Made by a program: the position numbers and the translations under genes. The notes under the pieces were generated by a model. That model saw nothing but the letters and a program-made list of their open reading frames with translations, was not told where the DNA came from and did no database searches. From NCBI GenBank assembly GCA_947463515.1, contig CANHRI010000007.1, positions 1 to 64,000 of the forward strand: DNA of 64,000 nt. Direction: 5' to 3'. The stretch comes from Flavobacteriaceae bacterium (GTDB lineage: Bacteria; Bacteroidota; Bacteroidia; Flavobacteriales; Flavobacteriaceae). Shown in pieces: positions 46,404 to 55,850 of the stretch. Each line of letters opens with the position of its first letter. Positions within the stretch are counted from its first letter, which is position 1.

Positions 46404-48524
46404 TTAAAACTGCAAGGTCAATCCTACCAAGAAATTACGCCCCGCCTGTGGATAATAATACGGGAAAATATCCCACATATATCCGTTGGAGACATAGGTC
46501 TTGTCCAAAATATTATTGACCAAACCATTGACCGTAATCGTACGGAAAACCGACTTAGGATTCCATGAGTACGAGACATTAAAGTCGTTGACAAAATAAT
46601 CCGGCAAGCGCGCTTCAGGACGCTCCAAGTTGTTCATGAACTGCTCCCCCACAAACTTACTCAACCAAGTAAGGTGTAAATTCTTCACGGGTTCAAACAG
46701 CAATAAATTGCCTGCAATAAGATTGGGAGAATAAGCAATAGCGGTGTTGCCTACAGCGACTCCATTATTGGTTAAATCGATATTTTGGTTCTGACTTATA
46801 GTAAAATTGGGTTTCCAAATCCACTGCTTAGACAAGGCAATCGTAGCATCAACTTCCAAGCCCAAACGGTAACTTCGCTCGCTGTTGGAACGCACCGGAC
46901 TCCCCACATCGTCAAGAGCTCCGGTCAAAATGAGTTGATCGCGATACAACATGTAGTACACGTTGGCATTGAATTGGACTTTAGACGCTTCATAACGCCA
47001 CCCCAATTCAAAGTCGTTGAGTTTCTCGGGACGTACATTACCTCCTTCATAGTCGGTACGATTGGGTTCGCGGTTGGCTCTCGCATACGAGAAATAAAGA
47101 ATATTTTTGGTATTCACCGCATAATTCACCCCTACTTTGGGATTAAAAAAGTTGAACGTATCGTCGACCAAGGTAGGTTGTACTCCATTGGCTTTGTAAT
47201 TCACCCGACGGTATTGCACATCGCCGTAAACGCTCCATTGCGAAGAAAGATCGTAGGTCGCTTTGGCAAAAACATTCCCATCGGTTTTGATTCCGTAGTC
47301 ATTGTAGTATTCATCCCCCAACTCCGATGTCGAGGCAAAACGCGCCCAAATCACGCGACCGAAATGCAAACCTTCATATTTGTTCCATCCCCCACCGAGA
47401 ATCAAGTCAAACTTGTCCTTTTTATAATTGGCTGAAAAGGTTGTTCCATAAAAATCATTGTCCAACCATTTCTGACGAATCAAATCCGTACTGGTTTGTC
47501 CCGCTACAGGAGCGAGTCCGTACTCGGCAAAATCGGCATCTTCTTTGTAATTTTCAAAATACCCTTTTCCTTTGGTGTAATGCAAGGCAACGTTGGTACT
47601 CCAGTGGTCATTCCAGCGCTCACTCCAATGCAATTGCGCATGATCTTGCTGGTAATTATCGGTTTCATTGTCATAAAAACGGGTATTCCCAAATTCGTCG
47701 GTAAAAATCCCTGCCGAATTGAAAGTACGATCAACCGCCAATGTAGGTCCATCAATACCATTCCACGACTGATAGGTACGTTCGCGTCCACCAAACACCA
47801 ACCCTTTGATTAAAGTTGTTTTTCCTACATAGGTCCCTTGCAAGAAATACGATTTCAGGTCGGCACTAGCGCGGTCAACATAACCGTCGGAGGCAATTTG
47901 CGAAAGCCGCCCTGCAATTTCAAAACGGTCATTCATTAATCCTGTACTGAATTTAACCGTGTGTTTGCGGGCGTTAAAACTCCCAAACGAGTTGGCAATT
48001 TCTCCCGTTCCTTTTTTGGAATACGAATCGGTAAGCAGATTCAAACTCGCTCCGAAGGCTCCAGCCCCATTGGTCGAGGTACCGACCCCACGTTGCAATT
48101 GCATACTTTGAACCGACGAGGCAAAATCGGGCATGTTTACCCAAAAGGTGCCGTGACTTTCGGAGTCGTTATAGGGAATCCCGTTGATGGTTACATTCAC
48201 ACGAGTCGCATCGGTACCCCGAACGCGTATACCCGTGTACCCAAAACCATTTCCAGCATCGGAAGTGGTCACTACCGAGGGCATATAATTCATCAAAATA
48301 GGAATGTCCTGCCCCAAATTGCGACTGGCAATGTCTTTTTGGGTAAGGTTGCTAAAGGTGACCGGTGTTTTTTTGTTCACACGGACAGCTTTGACCAACA
48401 CTTCATCCAGTTGGTTGACTTGGGTGGAGTCGTTGGACTTTTGCTGGGCACTTAGCCACAGCGGACCGAGAAATAGCGTCAGAAAGACCGAAGCTTTCAA
48501 GGATTTAACATAGGAATTTTCCAT
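46404..48524 (-). CDS. TonB-dependent outer membrane receptor, predicted thiamine-related
   Basis: Plug domain (VNVTINGIPYNDSESHGTFWVNMPDFASSVQSMQLQRGVGTSTNGAGAFGASLNL), barrel ending in FLVGLTLQF; preceded by a TPP riboswitch. Confidence 0.93.
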   Translation of the reverse strand: MENSYVKSLKASVFLTLFLGPLWLSAQQKSNDSTQVNQLDEVLVKAVRVNKKTPVTFSNLTQKDIASRNLGQDIPILMNYMPSVVTTSDAGNGFGYTGIRVRGTDATRVNVTINGIPYNDSESHGTFWVNMPDFASSVQSMQLQRGVGTSTNGAGAFGASLNLLTDSYSKKGTGEIANSFGSFNARKHTVKFSTGLMNDRFEIAGRLSQIASDGYVDRASADLKSYFLQGTYVGKTTLIKGLVFGGRERTYQSWNGIDGPTLAVDRTFNSAGIFTDEFGNTRFYDNETDNYQQDHAQLHWSERWNDHWSTNVALHYTKGKGYFENYKEDADFAEYGLAPVAGQTSTDLIRQKWLDNDFYGTTFSANYKKDKFDLILGGGWNKYEGLHFGRVIWARFASTSELGDEYYNDYGIKTDGNVFAKATYDLSSQWSVYGDVQYRRVNYKANGVQPTLVDDTFNFFNPKVGVNYAVNTKNILYFSYARANREPNRTDYEGGNVRPEKLNDFELGWRYEASKVQFNANVYYMLYRDQLILTGALDDVGSPVRSNSERSYRLGLEVDATIALSKQWIWKPNFTISQNQNIDLTNNGVAVGNTAIAYSPNLIAGNLLLFEPVKNLHLTWLSKFVGEQFMNNLERPEARLPDYFVNDFNVSYSWNPKSVFRTITVNGLVNNILDKTYVSNGYMWDIFPYYYPQAGRNFLVGLTLQF

Positions 48525-48545
48525 TCGTAAAAAAGGTTTACGAAT
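48523..48545 (-). promoter_or_regulatory. Hairpin overlapping the TonB receptor start codon
   Basis: Minus strand ATTCGTAAA-CCTTT-TTTACGAAT; last A and T are part of the ATG (48522-48524). Confidence 0.6.
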
Positions 48546-48629
48546 AACTGGGGTACATTATTCTTTGGTTAAAAAATGATTGTACTGGCCCGACATAGGC
48601 GAAGGCGCGCTTCTTCTACCGCTGTCTTT

Positions 48630-48712
48630 TTTTCCTTGGCAGCATTACCTGCCCAGGTTCAATGGGTATGATCTCAGCTCGTAATTTTGAGCACCCCGAT
48701 GAGACGATGCAA
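48630..48712 (-). promoter_or_regulatory. TPP riboswitch (THI element)
   Basis: Minus strand CATCGTCTCATCGGGGTGCTC...GAGCTGAGATCATACCCATTGAACCTGGGCAGGTAATGCTGCCAAGGAA contains the CUGAGA and ACCUG...UAAUGC..GCC signatures. Confidence 0.95.
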
Positions 48713-48750
48713 AGGTAAATTAATTTCTCGGGGAATTGCAAACCCTTTTT

Positions 48751-49152
48751 TTAAAAATTCGGCTTGCGACGATTTTGCTTGATTTCGGATTTGGATTTTT
48801 TGGCCGCCAAGCGTTCCATTTTGACACTGAAAGGGATGTTTGTCGCCTTACGAGGCTTGGGCACTTCAAGAGCTTGTGCCACCAATCGTAAGAGTTTTTT
48901 CTCGGCATTGGTTCGGTTTTTCAACTGGCTACGATCGGCTTCTGAGGTGATTTGCAACCAACCCTCGTTGGAAATTCGAGAAGCCAATTTTTCAAGAATA
49001 CGAACTTTTTCCTGAACATCAACCGCTTTAGAGGCTTGAACATCCCAAATCAACACGGCTTTGGAGGCCACTTTATTGACGTTTTGACCGCCAGCACCGC
49101 TGCTGCGTACCGCTTTAAATTGGAGTTCGGCTAGGAGTTGTGTCGCATTCAT
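48751..49152 (-). CDS. arfB: Alternative ribosome-rescue peptidyl-tRNA hydrolase ArfB-like
   Basis: AVRSSGAGGQNVNKVASKAVLIWDV GGQ motif and basic C-terminal tail. Confidence 0.92.
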   Translation of the reverse strand: MNATQLLAELQFKAVRSSGAGGQNVNKVASKAVLIWDVQASKAVDVQEKVRILEKLASRISNEGWLQITSEADRSQLKNRTNAEKKLLRLVAQALEVPKPRKATNIPFSVKMERLAAKKSKSEIKQNRRKPNF

Positions 49153-51272
49153 GAGCGGGGTTGATGGGCTGGTTTTAGTAAATCATTGACCGTTTTTACA
49201 GGATTAAAGGTTTCTAGAGGAACTTCCACAAAAAGGGTAATCCATTTGGCCATAGCGCCGTTCCACAACCCAGGCAATTCAAAGGCTTTCAGCGGACGAC
49301 CATCTTTGTTTTTCTCGACAATAAATCCGGTATGCGGATCCACAAATCGGGTTAGGTCAAAATTGCGCCCTTGAAAATCACGAATGCCACACACCAAGTC
49401 CACAGGGTTGAAATGGGTTGCTTGCTCCATAATGAAGCGCTGGTTTTTTTCAATTTGTGACGACTCTATGATTTGCAAAAACACACGTCCTTTCTGATCG
49501 CGTACCCAAAAAGGACCTCCCCCAGGTTCGCCTTCATTTTTAACCATCCCGCAAACTCGAATGGGTCGGTTGAGTGCTTCCATTAAATACTCAATCTTGC
49601 TTTCGCGGGTATATTTGGGGAAGTCTTCGCTGATTTCCATGAGCAGTTTCTGACTCACAAACTGGGCGATTTCATGGAGCATCTCGATGGTTACCTGATC
49701 TTGATGCAAGTATTTTAAATAGCGGAAAACGGTTTCTTGCACTTGCAATAAAATTCCCCCAAGAGCTTTTTTGTACAAAGCGATTTGGGTGGTGTAATTG
49801 TGCGCTACGTTGTCAATATTTTTTACAAAAACAATATCGGCGTTCAAGCAATTCATGTTTTGAATTAGTGCACCGTGCCCCCCAGGACGAAATACGATAG
49901 CATCATGCTTGTCGCGAAAGGGTTTTCCATCAGGGGTAAGGGCAATAACGTCGGTCGCTTTATCTTGGTAGGAATAGTTCACTTGAATGAATACCTCATG
50001 GGTCGCTTCAATTTTCGGCTTAACCGTTTCTACAATAGATTCAAATTGAGACTGATACTCCTCCGATACGGTAAAATGCACTTTTGATTTTCCATCAGCA
50101 TGGGCATAGAGCGCACACTCCAACAAATGTTCTTCAATAGGCGTAATACTTGCTCCGCCCTGTTGATGAAAAGGCAACACCCCTTTGGGTTTATTGGCAA
50201 AATCAAATTGCGGCGCCGTCATCAAGGTTTTAATAAAATAATAATGCTTCTCGTCGGTTGATAGAGAGTTAAAACTCGGGTACAAAGTTCGTGTCGTTTC
50301 AGTAACTTCCTTGAAAAAAGGGAATTTCTCAAGCGCGATTAAAAACAGGGCTAAGTCTTTATTTTTCGCGTGGTTGATGTAGGAGTTAATGGTATCCTTC
50401 CCGGGTTTAAAATCGTGCAAAAACTCGTTTAAGAATTTAAACATACGACTCGCAGCACCCGAGGCGGGAACGAATTTTTTAAGGCAATAGGTTTCTTTTT
50501 TTTGGTCAAAATACGTAGCGTAATACCGTGCTTCCTCTTCCGACAAGGCTTGAATGCCATCATCGATCGTGGCAGCGCGTTCCAATTGAATCTTGGGCAA
50601 GCCATTTTTTAGGATAGAAAATTGGTAGCGCAAGACATCCCAATCCATGTTTCGGGCTTGAATTTGCAAAAAGTCATGGGAAGTAAAGCCCCATAGTAAC
50701 GCTTTTTCCAGATCCAAAATCAGTTGCTTTACTAGGGCAACACGCGTAGTTATATCGCCACTAAGTTTGATATATGGTTTTTGATAGCGAATGAGTTGCT
50801 CTTCAAAAAACTGCAATGTTTCGGCGCGGTTATGGGGACGATCGCGGAGGTCATCGGGTTCCCAAGGCACGTCGATGTCGGTGAGAAAAATAAGGTCGTA
50901 TTTATGTTTTTTTGCCGCTTTTTCCAGCATGGGGTCTACGGCGCCATAGTACAATTCTCCAAACGCTTTGGTGACCAAAACCGTGGTATCACAAAACAAA
51001 AAACGGCGGGCTTCTTGCAATTTTTGATTCTCCAACTGGGTTTGTCCCACAGCAATGGGCAACAAATCATCAGGCTGACATAGTTCCCCTTTTTCATCCC
51101 ATTTTTCTTGCAGGTAATCCCGTGCAAATTCAGGAGCCCAAACGGTATCAAAATCGGCCGCCAACTGCCGAGCAAGAGTCGTTTTACCGGTTGATTCGGG
51201 ACCATAAAAAGCAATGCGTAAAACCGATTTCTCTAAGTTGAGGAGGGAGTATTGTTTAAGATTTTCTTCCAT
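49149..51272 (-). CDS. NadR-like P-loop kinase domain fused to a DUF4301 domain
   Basis: FYGPESTGKTTLARQLAADFDTVWAPEFARDYL followed, after ILDLEKALLW, by GFTSHDFLQIQARNMDWDVLRYQFSILKNGLPKIQLERAATIDDGI, DUF4301-like; start set at MEENLKQ. Confidence 0.8.
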   Translation of the reverse strand: MEENLKQYSLLNLEKSVLRIAFYGPESTGKTTLARQLAADFDTVWAPEFARDYLQEKWDEKGELCQPDDLLPIAVGQTQLENQKLQEARRFLFCDTTVLVTKAFGELYYGAVDPMLEKAAKKHKYDLIFLTDIDVPWEPDDLRDRPHNRAETLQFFEEQLIRYQKPYIKLSGDITTRVALVKQLILDLEKALLWGFTSHDFLQIQARNMDWDVLRYQFSILKNGLPKIQLERAATIDDGIQALSEEEARYYATYFDQKKETYCLKKFVPASGAASRMFKFLNEFLHDFKPGKDTINSYINHAKNKDLALFLIALEKFPFFKEVTETTRTLYPSFNSLSTDEKHYYFIKTLMTAPQFDFANKPKGVLPFHQQGGASITPIEEHLLECALYAHADGKSKVHFTVSEEYQSQFESIVETVKPKIEATHEVFIQVNYSYQDKATDVIALTPDGKPFRDKHDAIVFRPGGHGALIQNMNCLNADIVFVKNIDNVAHNYTTQIALYKKALGGILLQVQETVFRYLKYLHQDQVTIEMLHEIAQFVSQKLLMEISEDFPKYTRESKIEYLMEALNRPIRVCGMVKNEGEPGGGPFWVRDQKGRVFLQIIESSQIEKNQRFIMEQATHFNPVDLVCGIRDFQGRNFDLTRFVDPHTGFIVEKNKDGRPLKAFELPGLWNGAMAKWITLFVEVPLETFNPVKTVNDLLKPAHQPRS

Positions 51273-51853
51273 TCGATGTAGGCTAAAACGGCCAAAACCG
51301 TGAATAGTAAATATTGTAAGGAGAGCATACCGAGTCCGCGGTAGGCAAACAAGGGTACAGCGATGCAATCTCCAATAATCCAAAGGGTCCAATTTTCAAT
51401 TTTTTTTAACGCCATGTACCACATCGCGGTAAAAAATAACCCTGAAGTAAAAATATCAATATAATTGGGAATTTCAAGGGTATAATCAAAAATTTGGTAG
51501 ACGCCATAGGTAACCAAAAGCGTGAAAACAAACAATCCGATACCGATGATTTTCTCGTTAACGGTGGTGCGTGAAATGGGCAATGGACCCGAGATAGTAC
51601 CCTTAGACCAGCGGTACCAGCCGTAAACACTCATGATGGAGTAATAGACATTGATGGTCATGTCACCGAAATACTGCGCTTGGTACAACAAATAGACGGT
51701 GATAACGGTAGAAATGAGTCCGGTGGGGTACACCCAAATATTTTCCTTCTTCGCAAAATACACGCTCAAAATACCGCTGACAAAAGCCAAAAACTCCAAA
51801 GTAATTTGGAGTGCCGAGGCATTTTCATACGCTTTTAAAAAGAAATCGAACAT
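51233..51853 (-). CDS. pnuC: PnuC-family transporter
   Basis: 206 aa; VYFAKKENIWVYPTGLISTVITVYLLYQAQYFGDMTINVYYSIMSVYGWYRW. Confidence 0.92.
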   Translation of the reverse strand: MFDFFLKAYENASALQITLEFLAFVSGILSVYFAKKENIWVYPTGLISTVITVYLLYQAQYFGDMTINVYYSIMSVYGWYRWSKGTISGPLPISRTTVNEKIIGIGLFVFTLLVTYGVYQIFDYTLEIPNYIDIFTSGLFFTAMWYMALKKIENWTLWIIGDCIAVPLFAYRGLGMLSLQYLLFTVLAVLAYIEWKKILNNTPSST

Positions 51854-51930: not shown

Positions 51931-52647
51931 TTATAAGGCTTTAAAAAAATGGGGATTTTCCTCAAAGGCGGTTCCAATCACCACCATAGTAGCGCCTGCT
52001 TGGTGGGCCGCCTGAATTTGGGAAAAGGAACGAATACCGCCCCCTACAATTAACGGTATCGCTAAGGTTTGGGCTACCGTGGTAATCATTTCGAGCGGCA
52101 CAGCGTGTTGCGCCCCACTCCCCGCTTCCAAATAAATCAGTTTTTTACCCAAGAGTTGGCCCGCGAGTGCAGTCATTGCTGCGTGTTGGGGATTATTTCG
52201 CGCCAAAGGTAGCGTACCACTCACGCGTTGCACAGCGGTTTCGGCACCGCTTTCAATGAGGAGATAGCCGGTAGGCAGAATTTCTAAATTGGAATGGTGC
52301 AACAGTGGCGCGGCTTTTACTTGTTGTTCAATTAAGTACTCGGGGTTGCGGCCGGAGAGCAGCGATAAAAACAAAATTCCGTCGGCGGCTTCGGTGATTT
52401 GGGCATAATCGCCCGGAAATAAGAGTACGGGTAAACCCGATGTTTTTTTGAGTTGGAGCACCAATTCCTCCAAATGCGGCCCTTGAAATGTGCTGCCGCC
52501 CACGAGCAAATGCGTCACGGGCGTTTCCTTTAACTGCGCGCACAACGCAACGGCTTGATCGGGTTGGGTTTTCTCGGGATCAATGAGTACCGCCAACAAG
52601 CGCTGTTGGTTTTGGTAGGCCGTAAAAAGGGAGTCGTATACCTTCAT
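51931..52647 (-). CDS. Geranylgeranylglyceryl phosphate synthase family (PcrB-like)
   Basis: LLAVLIDPEKTQPDQAV, LLVGGSTFQG, FLSLLSGRNPEYLIEQQ, GSGAQHAV, PLIVGGGIRSFSQIQAAHQAGATMVVIGTAFEE. Confidence 0.92.
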   Translation of the reverse strand: MKVYDSLFTAYQNQQRLLAVLIDPEKTQPDQAVALCAQLKETPVTHLLVGGSTFQGPHLEELVLQLKKTSGLPVLLFPGDYAQITEAADGILFLSLLSGRNPEYLIEQQVKAAPLLHHSNLEILPTGYLLIESGAETAVQRVSGTLPLARNNPQHAAMTALAGQLLGKKLIYLEAGSGAQHAVPLEMITTVAQTLAIPLIVGGGIRSFSQIQAAHQAGATMVVIGTAFEENPHFFKAL

Positions 52648-53276
52648 TAGGATTCAAAAACGCACACAAAGATATAGTCTTCGCGTTGAATAAATTGTAC
52701 CGGGAATAATTCCGTTCGGTGCTTAAAGTCCAAACGCGCCACCGTGGCTCCCTCGGCAGGATCAAAGGGTTGCTCACTGATATGGCTAGGGTAACTGATG
52801 CCTTTTTCGTTTTTGATTTTGAACACCGCTTCTTTGATACTCCAAATGATGGTGGCTTTTTGGAGTTGTTCGGCAAGCGACAAGCCTGATAGGTGCGTAT
52901 CAACATCCATAAAACGGGGGGCTATTTTGAGGACTTTAGGCCGCATCGCTTCAACGTCGAGACCGAGGTTTTCGTTACTGATGGCTACCGCAGCAAACCC
53001 ATGGGAATGGGAAATCGAAACATATTGCCCGTGAGACAAATGGGGTTTTCCACTGGTATCGTAACTGAGATCTGCATCGGAAAATCCGAGGTGCTGCAAC
53101 AAATGCCGCACGGCTAGGAATCCTTTTTGGTGAACTTCCGATTTGAGTTTGTGTAACCGAATCAAGGAATGATCCTGTAGGGGAACTCCGGCAATCAAAC
53201 TGTCTAAGGGCTCCTCAATTTTCCAGAGGTGCAATTGGGTTTGGGGACGGATGGGTATGGTTTCGTAAAATGGCAT
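52647..53276 (-). CDS. 4'-phosphopantetheinyl transferase superfamily protein
   Basis: ISHSHGFAAVAISNENLGLDVEAMRPKVLKIAPRFM...IIWSIKEAVFKI; start uncertain (53276 or 53381). Confidence 0.85.
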   Translation of the reverse strand: MPFYETIPIRPQTQLHLWKIEEPLDSLIAGVPLQDHSLIRLHKLKSEVHQKGFLAVRHLLQHLGFSDADLSYDTSGKPHLSHGQYVSISHSHGFAAVAISNENLGLDVEAMRPKVLKIAPRFMDVDTHLSGLSLAEQLQKATIIWSIKEAVFKIKNEKGISYPSHISEQPFDPAEGATVARLDFKHRTELFPVQFIQREDYIFVCVFES

Positions 53277-53531
53277 TTGTGCAGTATATCCTAGCCCCGA
53301 TAGTAGTGGAAATCCTTTTTGGGGTGGGAGTAACGGCGTGAATTCGATACCTTTGACCTCATCACCCCAAAAAGATTGCAACGGATAGCGGGAAATAGCT
53401 CCTTATTATTTTTCTGATTATTAGCGGGTTAAATCGGATTAACGATTCATAAAATTACATTAAAGTTTTTTATTTCGAAACTTAGTTTGTAATTTTGCAC
53501 CCTCAAATATAAACACAAATATACACAATAC

Positions 53532-55178: not shown

Positions 55179-55529
55179 TTAAAAATCATCTTTATCCAAA
55201 ATGGCTTGTACCTTAACTTTCAATTCGGGTAAATTAATTTTGACTACATTCCATATCGTGAAATCATCAATACCAAAATATTCATGAATAACTAAATTTC
55301 GTAATCCAATAATTCTCGCCCAAGGTATTTCTGGATGATTTAAAAGTAAATTTTGTGATAATCTATTACAAGCTTCTCCGATAATTTCAAGCTGCCTTAA
55401 GGTTGCATTAAACATCATTGAATTTTTTACAAAATGATCCAAATCGGCATCTTGAATATAGTTTTCTATTTCAGTTATTGCGTCCATGACATGAAGCAAT
55501 CGAACTTTATCCCCTAACCTATCTTGCAT
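55179..55529 (-). CDS. HEPT-domain protein (HepT-like)
   Basis: 116 aa DUF86/HepT-like; NATLRQLEIIGEACNRLS...WARIIGLRNLVIHEYFGID. Confidence 0.92.
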   Translation of the reverse strand: MQDRLGDKVRLLHVMDAITEIENYIQDADLDHFVKNSMMFNATLRQLEIIGEACNRLSQNLLLNHPEIPWARIIGLRNLVIHEYFGIDDFTIWNVVKINLPELKVKVQAILDKDDF

Positions 55530-55812
55530 AAATTAATTTTTTCTCTTTATCCACGATGGGTTTGATGTATTTTGACAAACCTCGTTCAGAAACTAAATCT
55601 ACTTTTTTGGATAGTAGTTCTTGTAAATCCAATTGCATCTGAATAAATTCTAAACCAATGGGCTGGGAATAATCTAACTCAACCAACAAATCAATATCAC
55701 TAGAATCATTTTCTAAATCTTTACTATAAGACCCAAAAAGGTAGGCTTTCAAAACAGGTTGTTTCGAAAAAAAATTCTGTATAATATTGATTTGATTGCT
55801 GTTAAGACTCAT
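55519..55812 (-). CDS. MNT-domain minimal nucleotidyltransferase (MntA-like)
   Basis: LKAYLFGSYSKDLENDSSDIDLLVELD: GS...DxD nucleotidyltransferase motif; overlaps the HEPT gene by 11 bp. Confidence 0.92.
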   Translation of the reverse strand: MSLNSNQINIIQNFFSKQPVLKAYLFGSYSKDLENDSSDIDLLVELDYSQPIGLEFIQMQLDLQELLSKKVDLVSERGLSKYIKPIVDKEKKLIYAR

Positions 55813-55850
55813 CTTCAAAGTGTTTGAACAAAATTAATCAAAAAAAACAT

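What the first reader, a model, noticed from the sequence alone, without database searches (positions are those of the whole stretch)
46404..51853. Putative vitamin-scavenging locus: TPP riboswitch-TonB receptor next to PnuC and NadR-like kinase fused to DUF4301
A clear TPP riboswitch precedes the TonB receptor. Upstream on the same strand lie pnuC, a NadR-like P-loop kinase/DUF4301 fusion and arfB. In Bacteroidetes, TPP-regulated TonB receptors are known next to PnuC paralogs (PnuT) proposed to import thiamine. This neighbourhood suggests that the PnuC here moves thiamine or a precursor, and that the NadR-like kinase or DUF4301 traps or processes it. DUF4301 has no function I know of.
Basis: partly seen in the sequence, partly recalled or inferred. 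Interest (0 to 1): 0.7.

Follow-up and report, generated by a model that had tools for sequence, protein, structure and literature searches.

The report
Thiamine-uptake locus with unusual kinase
This Flavobacterium locus takes up vitamin B1, and comparison of about 280 genomes suggests that the enzyme beside its transporter, annotated as a vitamin-B3 kinase, is an unrecognised thiamine kinase that replaces the usual thiamine-activating enzyme across much of the Bacteroidota.

Summary
All the reported features are real. A TPP aptamer (48614-48708, minus; 45.3 bits, below Rfam's cut-off of 54.3 but E 9e-8) and its own promoter precede only the TonB receptor; pnuC, the kinase-DUF4301 fusion and arfB lie upstream of the riboswitch. 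The thiamine reading of PnuC and the kinase is well supported. (1) The order PnuC-kinase-TPP riboswitch-receptor recurs in many families, often with a YkoF/PF01910-like thiamine-binding gene or a TMP-synthase-family gene. (2) The kinase is nearly exclusive with thiamin pyrophosphokinase (TPK): 78 versus 30 of 149 Bacteroidia genomes, both only in this genus. (3) Nineteen genomes with kinase plus ThiL lack TPK, ThiC and any ThiE-family hit. (4) Window PnuC groups with TPK-linked PnuT proteins; all seven NadR-linked PnuCs fall outside. Best reading: the NadR-like protein is a thiamine kinase feeding ThiL. Its activity is predicted, not shown, and this genus also has TPK. DUF4301 is probably not a thiamine enzyme: its model resembles UDP-sugar pyrophosphorylases, it is usually a separate gene away from thiamine genes, and it persists where the kinase domain is gone. 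An extra observation: a covarying hairpin closes on the receptor's start codon, a candidate translational riboswitch platform.

The parts
46404..48524 (-). TonB-dependent outer-membrane receptor, probable thiamine receptor (OMthi/Omr1-like)
   Evidence: Pfam PF00593/PF07715; profile of this receptor matches the TBDT of the TBDT-PnuC-TPK loci at 1e-266 (L284) and 3e-261 (L296); TPP aptamer in its leader
48523..48545 (-). Start-codon hairpin ATTCGTAAA/CCTTT/TTTACGAAT whose 3' arm includes the A and T of the receptor's ATG; candidate expression platform
   Evidence: conserved in 21 of 22 aligned leaders by the scan (the scan picked another stem in L056, whose letters also hold ATTCGTA/TACGAAT), with base changes that keep pairing; mean stem 8.6 versus 5.25 in shuffles, maximum 6.05
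48542..48563 (-). Alternative hairpin GAATAA/TTATTC with CCCC in its loop; cannot form together with the start-codon hairpin
   Evidence: near-invariant block in alignment A5; switching logic inferred
48614..48708 (-). TPP riboswitch aptamer
   Evidence: RF00059, 45.3 bits, E 9.2e-8; same position in relatives
48710..48741 (-). Flavobacterial-type promoter-like element TTG-N21-TAccTTTG for the receptor transcript
   Evidence: TAnnTTTG at 40-41 nt before CTGAGA in all 13 leaders examined in this genus; consensus from general knowledge
48751..49152 (-). arfB, ribosome-rescue hydrolase; overlaps the fusion gene by 4 nt; conserved neighbour, no thiamine role inferred
   Evidence: NF006718 above cut-off
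49149..50684 (-). DUF4301 domain, UDP-sugar-pyrophosphorylase-like fold
   Evidence: PF14134 4.9e-198; AF2 pTM 0.84; Foldseek top 10 all UGP/UAP, E 2e-8 to 2e-6
50697..51272 (-). NadR-RNK-like P-loop kinase domain (KIN), predicted thiamine kinase; likely start ATG 51272, about 40 nt inside pnuC
   Evidence: AAA_28 2.1e-38; model pLDDT 91.5, best structural hits NadR 8x7f and 1lw7; catalytic residues kept
51233..51853 (-). PnuC-family inner-membrane transporter, probable PnuT
   Evidence: PF04973 5.2e-50; tree placement
51931..52647 (-). GGGPS/PcrB-family prenyltransferase, conserved neighbour without evident thiamine role
   Evidence: NF003198 above cut-off; adjacency in many families
52647..53381 (-). 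4'-phosphopantetheinyl transferase, conserved neighbour; real start probably near 53276
   Evidence: PF01648/PF17837; adjacency

Best explanation
The locus is a thiamine-salvage module. When TPP is scarce the riboswitch lets the TonB receptor be made; the receptor brings thiamine across the outer membrane, PnuC (a PnuT) lets it equilibrate across the inner membrane, and the NadR-like kinase domain phosphorylates it to thiamine monophosphate, which traps it. The separately encoded ThiL then makes TPP. Across the Bacteroidota this kinase stands where Bacteroides uses thiamin pyrophosphokinase (TPK). Shown by sequence: the parts, their conserved order, the near-exclusivity with TPK, and retained kinase catalytic residues. 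Inferred: the substrate, the product and the trapping step. DUF4301 is an unrelated UDP-sugar-pyrophosphorylase-like enzyme fused through adjacency. In the window's genus TPK is also present, so the kinase may be a second route or on the way to being lost.
For: Linkage: PnuC is immediately upstream of the kinase in 60 of 90 kinase loci and a matching receptor within 5 kb downstream in 50 of 90; a regex finds the TPP riboswitch downstream in 41 of 90, in 10 families, with Rfam adding f75; also in Pontibacter and Hymenobacter. Thiamine-binding (PF01910/YkoF) gene beside it: 19 of 23 members match PF01910, best 3.7e-8; profile hits MJ1052 and YkoF structures. TMP-TENI family gene beside it in seven loci. 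TPK occupies the same place after PnuC in L284, L286 and L296. Near-exclusivity: class 78 kinase, 30 TPK, 3 both, all this genus; genera 52 versus 23 sharing only g1, Fisher p 7e-8; order 86 versus 70 of 148, both 15, neither 7; 13 of 14 named or reached kinase-locus genomes lack TPK, the exception being Flavobacterium orientale. 19 of 24 sampled kinase-positive TPK-negative genomes lack ThiC and a ThiE-family hit above cut-off, yet all 19 have ThiL. Two Flavobacterium-group genomes with TPK lost only the kinase. PnuC tree. Separate bona fide NadR-PnuC loci exist in genomes that also have the kinase.
Against: No biochemistry. Fisher values ignore shared ancestry. Some kinase loci have no nearby thiamine feature, and some lack PnuC. 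44 of 149 class genomes have neither enzyme; some of the order-level ones (G260, G284) have PnuC but no known thiamine kinase. ThiL is also kept in TPK-positive genomes without the kinase or ThiE (G192, G267), so ThiL presence is not diagnostic. PPT and GGGPS are equally conserved neighbours with no thiamine role. Kinase and NadR domains are not cleanly separated in the tree.
Confidence: 0.75

Rival explanations
1. The PnuC-kinase pair salvages nicotinamide riboside (as in PnuC-NadR), and its position beside a TPP-controlled receptor is only a conserved gene neighbourhood.
For: Best-characterised homologues of the kinase and PnuC handle nicotinamide riboside; unrelated genes (PPT, GGGPS, ArfB) are also conserved neighbours.
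Against: No NMN adenylyltransferase domain on the kinase; near-exclusivity with TPK; thiamine-binding and TMP-TENI genes in the cluster; PnuC groups with TPK-linked PnuT; true NadR-PnuC loci exist separately, in some genomes beside the kinase.
Confidence: 0.1
2. The kinase acts on a thiamine precursor or breakdown product (HMP, thiazole alcohol, or another vitamer) rather than on thiamine itself.
For: YkoF-like proteins bind HMP as well as thiamine (general knowledge; PMC10881298 lists ykoF as a B1/HMP-binding protein); TMP-TENI family genes occur in some of these clusters.
Against: 19 kinase-positive genomes have no ThiC and no ThiE-family hit above cut-off and no TPK, so precursor salvage would still leave no known route to TMP or TPP.
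Confidence: 0.1
3. The kinase is a thiamin pyrophosphokinase that makes TPP directly from thiamine, a functional copy of TPK.
For: It stands in the same place as TPK after PnuC and is nearly exclusive with it.
Against: Its closest fold and sequence relatives transfer one phosphate (NadR RNK, thymidylate kinase); ThiL is present in all 19 genomes of the informative set, although ThiL alone is not diagnostic.
Confidence: 0.07
4. DUF4301 takes part in thiamine metabolism, and the fusion reflects a shared pathway.
For: Fused to the kinase in Flavobacterium and G254 and adjacent in most Flavobacteriaceae.
Against: UDP-sugar-pyrophosphorylase-like fold; separate copies in 19 other genomes' loci without pnuC, kinase or receptor nearby; kept when the kinase is lost; the kinase is fused to PPT or aldose epimerase elsewhere.
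Confidence: 0.08

Closest known systems
Bacteroides OMthi-pnuT-tnr3 thiamine uptake operon (PMC5613172)
   Same: TPP riboswitch, TonB receptor, PnuC-family transporter and a thiamine-phosphorylating enzyme; window receptor and PnuC match those of TBDT-PnuC-TPK loci
   Different: the enzyme after PnuC is a NadR-like P-loop kinase instead of TPK; the riboswitch and receptor lie downstream as their own transcription unit
NadR (NMN adenylyltransferase plus ribosylnicotinamide kinase) with PnuC
   Same: kinase domain fold and catalytic residues; PnuC beside it; model's best structural hits are NadR
   Different: no NMNAT domain; invariant differences such as Q117 (97%) where NadR mostly has His; genome context is thiamine, not NAD
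ThiK and ThiN/TPK, known thiamine salvage enzymes (PMC6593275)
   Same: predicted role: first phosphorylation of imported thiamine
   Different: unrelated protein family; not listed among salvage enzymes in the paper read
UDPGP family (UDP-glucose and UDP-GlcNAc pyrophosphorylases)
   Same: Foldseek top ten hits of the DUF4301 model, probability 1.00
   Different: 10-14% identity, TM 0.35-0.52, no sequence-profile hit; substrate unknown
YkoF / PF01910 thiamine-binding proteins
   Same: 86-aa neighbour gene in relatives matches the family
   Different: absent from the window's genus; half the size of YkoF

Membership tests
TPP riboswitch (RF00059) | covariance-model match at the curated threshold | tested here: not met
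   45.3 bits versus 54.3
TPP riboswitch (RF00059) | full-length aptamer with conserved CUGAGA and GAACCUG cores in the leader of a thiamine gene, conserved in relatives | tested here: met
   positions 1-105 aligned, E 9.2e-8; same place in relatives
TPP riboswitch (RF00059) | TPP binding and gene control | not testable with these tools
   needs in-line probing or reporters
PnuT (thiamine transporter of the PnuC family) | PnuC-family membrane protein | tested here: met
   PF04973 5.2e-50, TIGR01528 above cut-off
PnuT (thiamine transporter of the PnuC family) | groups with PnuC proteins in thiamine context rather than NadR-linked ones | tested here: met
   50-row clade, support 95/92, with all 3 TPK-linked and the riboswitch-preceded L185; all 7 NadR-linked outside
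PnuT (thiamine transporter of the PnuC family) | transports thiamine | not testable with these tools
   uptake assay needed
NadR | ribosylnicotinamide-kinase-type domain with Walker A and catalytic residues | tested here: met
NadR | NMN adenylyltransferase domain | tested here: not met
   no CTP_transf_like match in the fusion, unlike L095 and L206; TIGR01526 match covers only the kinase part, 104.7 versus cut-off 341 bits
Thiamine kinase (functional class) | replaces known thiamine-activating enzymes in genomes that need one | tested here: met
   near-exclusive with TPK; exception is this genus
Thiamine kinase (functional class) | phosphorylates thiamine | not testable with these tools
   enzyme assay needed
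Thiamin pyrophosphokinase (PF04263) | TPK catalytic domain | tested here: not met
   no PF04263 match in the kinase; a separate TPK lies at G000:C11
UDPGP family | overall fold | tested here: inconclusive
   all significant Foldseek hits are UGP/UAP but TM is at most about 0.5
UDPGP family | sequence-family match | tested here: not met
   only PF14134 matches; no PDB profile hit

The most novel reading that the evidence does not exclude
A NadR-ribosylnicotinamide-kinase-like family, present in about half of the Bacteroidia sampled, is an unrecognised thiamine kinase that together with ThiL replaces thiamin pyrophosphokinase, and so explains how many flavobacterial and other Bacteroidota thiamine auxotrophs activate vitamin B1.
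Probability: 0.7. Interest if true: 0.75.

Novelty: new variant of a known kind. Interest (0 to 1): 0.64.

Why it matters
If right, a protein annotated everywhere as NadR-like or AAA ATPase fills the missing thiamine-activation step in many Bacteroidota that lack ThiC, ThiE and TPK, including abundant aquatic Flavobacteriales. [quoted passage not shown] It would correct vitamin-B1 auxotrophy predictions, remove false NAD-salvage annotations, and give a directly testable enzyme. The start-codon hairpin is a candidate answer to how a TPP riboswitch acts in Bacteroidetes, which PMC5613172 calls uncertain. In the papers that could be searched, no report of a NadR-like thiamine kinase was found; subscription literature is largely missing, so prior mention cannot be excluded.

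Tried and rejected
Treating the kinase-DUF4301 fusion as evidence of a shared pathway: rejected because the kinase is fused to a phosphopantetheinyl transferase in f67/g146 and to an aldose epimerase in Hymenobacter L214, each a usual neighbour. DUF4301 as a thiamine enzyme: no thiamine neighbours around 19 free-standing copies; only recurrent neighbours were RelA/SpoT, pxpBC-like carboxyltransferases and others. Using ThiL presence as proof of a TMP route: weakened, because G192 and G267 keep ThiL without the kinase or ThiE. Sequence search of DUF4301 profile against solved structures gave nothing. Guess that the roughly 240-aa extension in G246 was PnuC: it is PPT. Guess that the 86-aa neighbour was a SemiSWEET-like half transporter: it is thiamine-binding-protein-like. 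Looking for a replacement kinase beside PnuC in G260 and G284: none recognised. The strong thi-operon riboswitches were read for a similar platform; no counterpart was obvious by eye. One paper on Dokdonia and vitamin B1 was not held.

Full report
What is there. On the minus strand, in transcription order, lie a phosphopantetheinyl transferase (PPT), a GGGPS-family prenyltransferase, pnuC (51853-51233), a kinase-DUF4301 fusion ending at 49149, arfB (49152-48751), a TPP aptamer (48708-48614) and a TonB receptor (48524-46404). The aptamer scores 45.3 bits, under Rfam's cut-off of 54.3, with E 9.2e-8 in the 501 bases searched; it is the only match in the 2.45-Mb genome at E up to 0.001. The fusion's listed TTG start overlaps pnuC by 160 nt; in relatives the gene starts about 40 nt inside pnuC, which corresponds to ATG 51272. 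The genus is probably Flavobacterium: Flavobacterium orientale carries the same fusion and order, but the window's name was not given.

Control. The riboswitch follows pnuC, the kinase and arfB, so it cannot directly control them. A promoter-like TAccTTTG (48717-48710) with TTG 21 nt upstream precedes it, and TAnnTTTG recurs 40-41 nt before CTGAGA in all 13 leaders examined in this genus. Downstream, a hairpin (48545-48523) includes the first two bases of the receptor's ATG. In 22 leaders the mean stem is 8.6 pairs versus 5.25 in mononucleotide shuffles (maximum 6.05), and sequence changes keep pairing (L060; the L071/L077/L196 group; L106 from another family). A second near-invariant hairpin, GAATAA/TTATTC with a CCCC-type loop, shares bases with it. 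The proposed switch, in which the loop's CCCC competes for the aptamer's GGGG, is inference.

Linkage of the kinase. The kinase domain is found in 86 of 148 genomes of the order. Around it the order PPT-GGGPS-[86-aa gene]-PnuC-kinase-[DUF4301]-[ArfB]-riboswitch-receptor recurs, with pieces missing in different lineages. Over 90 loci in 36 families, PnuC is directly upstream in 60, a matching receptor within 5 kb downstream in 50, and a regex-detected riboswitch in 41; the regex misses some that Rfam finds, such as family f75. The arrangement extends to Pontibacter and Hymenobacter. The 86-aa gene matches PF01910 in 19 of 23 members (best 3.7e-8) and the profile finds MJ1052 and YkoF structures at about 2e-6. 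In seven loci a neighbouring gene is of the TMP-TENI family.

Exclusivity with TPK. In 149 Bacteroidia genomes the kinase (E at most 1e-20) occurs in 78 and TPK in 30; only three, all of this genus, have both. At genus level 52 have the kinase and 23 TPK, sharing one (Fisher p 7e-8; not corrected for ancestry). In the order, 86 and 70 of 148, 15 both (14 of this genus plus G283, a weak hit in a 333-aa frame), 7 neither. Of 24 kinase-positive, TPK-negative genomes examined for biosynthesis, 19 have no ThiC and no PF02581 hit above cut-off, and all 19 have ThiL. Such cells can reach TPP from thiamine only if something makes TMP or TPP; the kinase is the only candidate seen. ThiL alone is not diagnostic, since G192 and G267 keep it with TPK and without the kinase. 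In G196 and G235, which have TPK, exactly the kinase domain is missing while PnuC, DUF4301, ArfB, riboswitch and receptor remain. TPK directly follows PnuC, next to or near a matching receptor, in L284, L286 and L296, as in the Bacteroides operon of PMC5613172.

PnuC and kinase relatives. In a 97-protein tree the window PnuC lies in a 50-row clade (95/92) that holds all three TPK-linked PnuCs and L185, which is directly preceded by a TPP riboswitch; all seven NadR-linked PnuCs fall outside. The kinase model (pLDDT 91.5) is closest to NadR and then to thymidylate kinases. Walker A, E88, R91, D135, D180 and R183 are kept; position 117 is Gln in 97% of kinases versus His in most NadR proteins. 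Kinase and NadR domains are mostly separate but not reciprocally monophyletic. Separate NadR loci, several with PnuC, occur in genomes that also have the kinase.

DUF4301. The AlphaFold2 model (pTM 0.84, ten sequences) has UDP-glucose or UDP-GlcNAc pyrophosphorylases as its ten significant matches (E 2e-8 to 2e-6, TM at most 0.52); no sequence-level match was found. Free-standing DUF4301 genes occur without pnuC, kinase or receptor nearby. The kinase also fuses to PPT and to aldose epimerase, so the fusion follows adjacency.

Interpretation and limits. The best-supported model is a thiamine-salvage locus whose NadR-like protein is a thiamine kinase working with ThiL. Every functional step is inferred from genomes. 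The window's organism lacks ThiC and ThiE-family genes but has TPK and ThiL, so it is probably a thiamine auxotroph with two possible activation routes.

Noticed in passing
window 48523-48563 (-): Two mutually exclusive hairpins between the TPP aptamer and the receptor's ATG, one closing on the start codon and covarying in relatives, the other with a CCCC loop that could pair with the aptamer's GGGG: a candidate translational expression platform.
   Followed up: partly
L232 genome handle G232, locus L185:4996-5758: A TPP riboswitch lies directly upstream of pnuC, which supports a thiamine role for that PnuC lineage.
   Followed up: partly
window 53289-53399 (+): Flavo-1 RNA (RF01705, 75.5 bits) between the PPT gene and S-adenosylhomocysteine hydrolase; it overlaps the listed start of the PPT ORF, whose real start is probably near 53276.
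   Followed up: no
window 55179-55818 (-): Two small adjacent ORFs that read like a nucleotidyltransferase (MNT) and HEPN-type pair; recognised by eye only.
   Followed up: no
window 49149-50684 (-) and relatives L116-L134: DUF4301, a family with no assigned function, models as a UDP-sugar-pyrophosphorylase-like enzyme; in four Bacteroidia loci it stands beside a RelA/SpoT gene.
   Followed up: partly
L290, L294, L295: Receptor-PnuC-NadR loci without the thiamine features, apparently the nicotinamide-riboside counterpart with a related TonB receptor.
   Followed up: partly
L307 (G260) and L308 (G284): Genomes with PnuC and a TPP riboswitch but with neither the kinase nor TPK found; how they phosphorylate thiamine is unexplained.
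   Followed up: partly
window 51931-53381 (-): GGGPS and phosphopantetheinyl transferase genes stay beside this thiamine cluster across many families although no functional link is evident.
   Followed up: no
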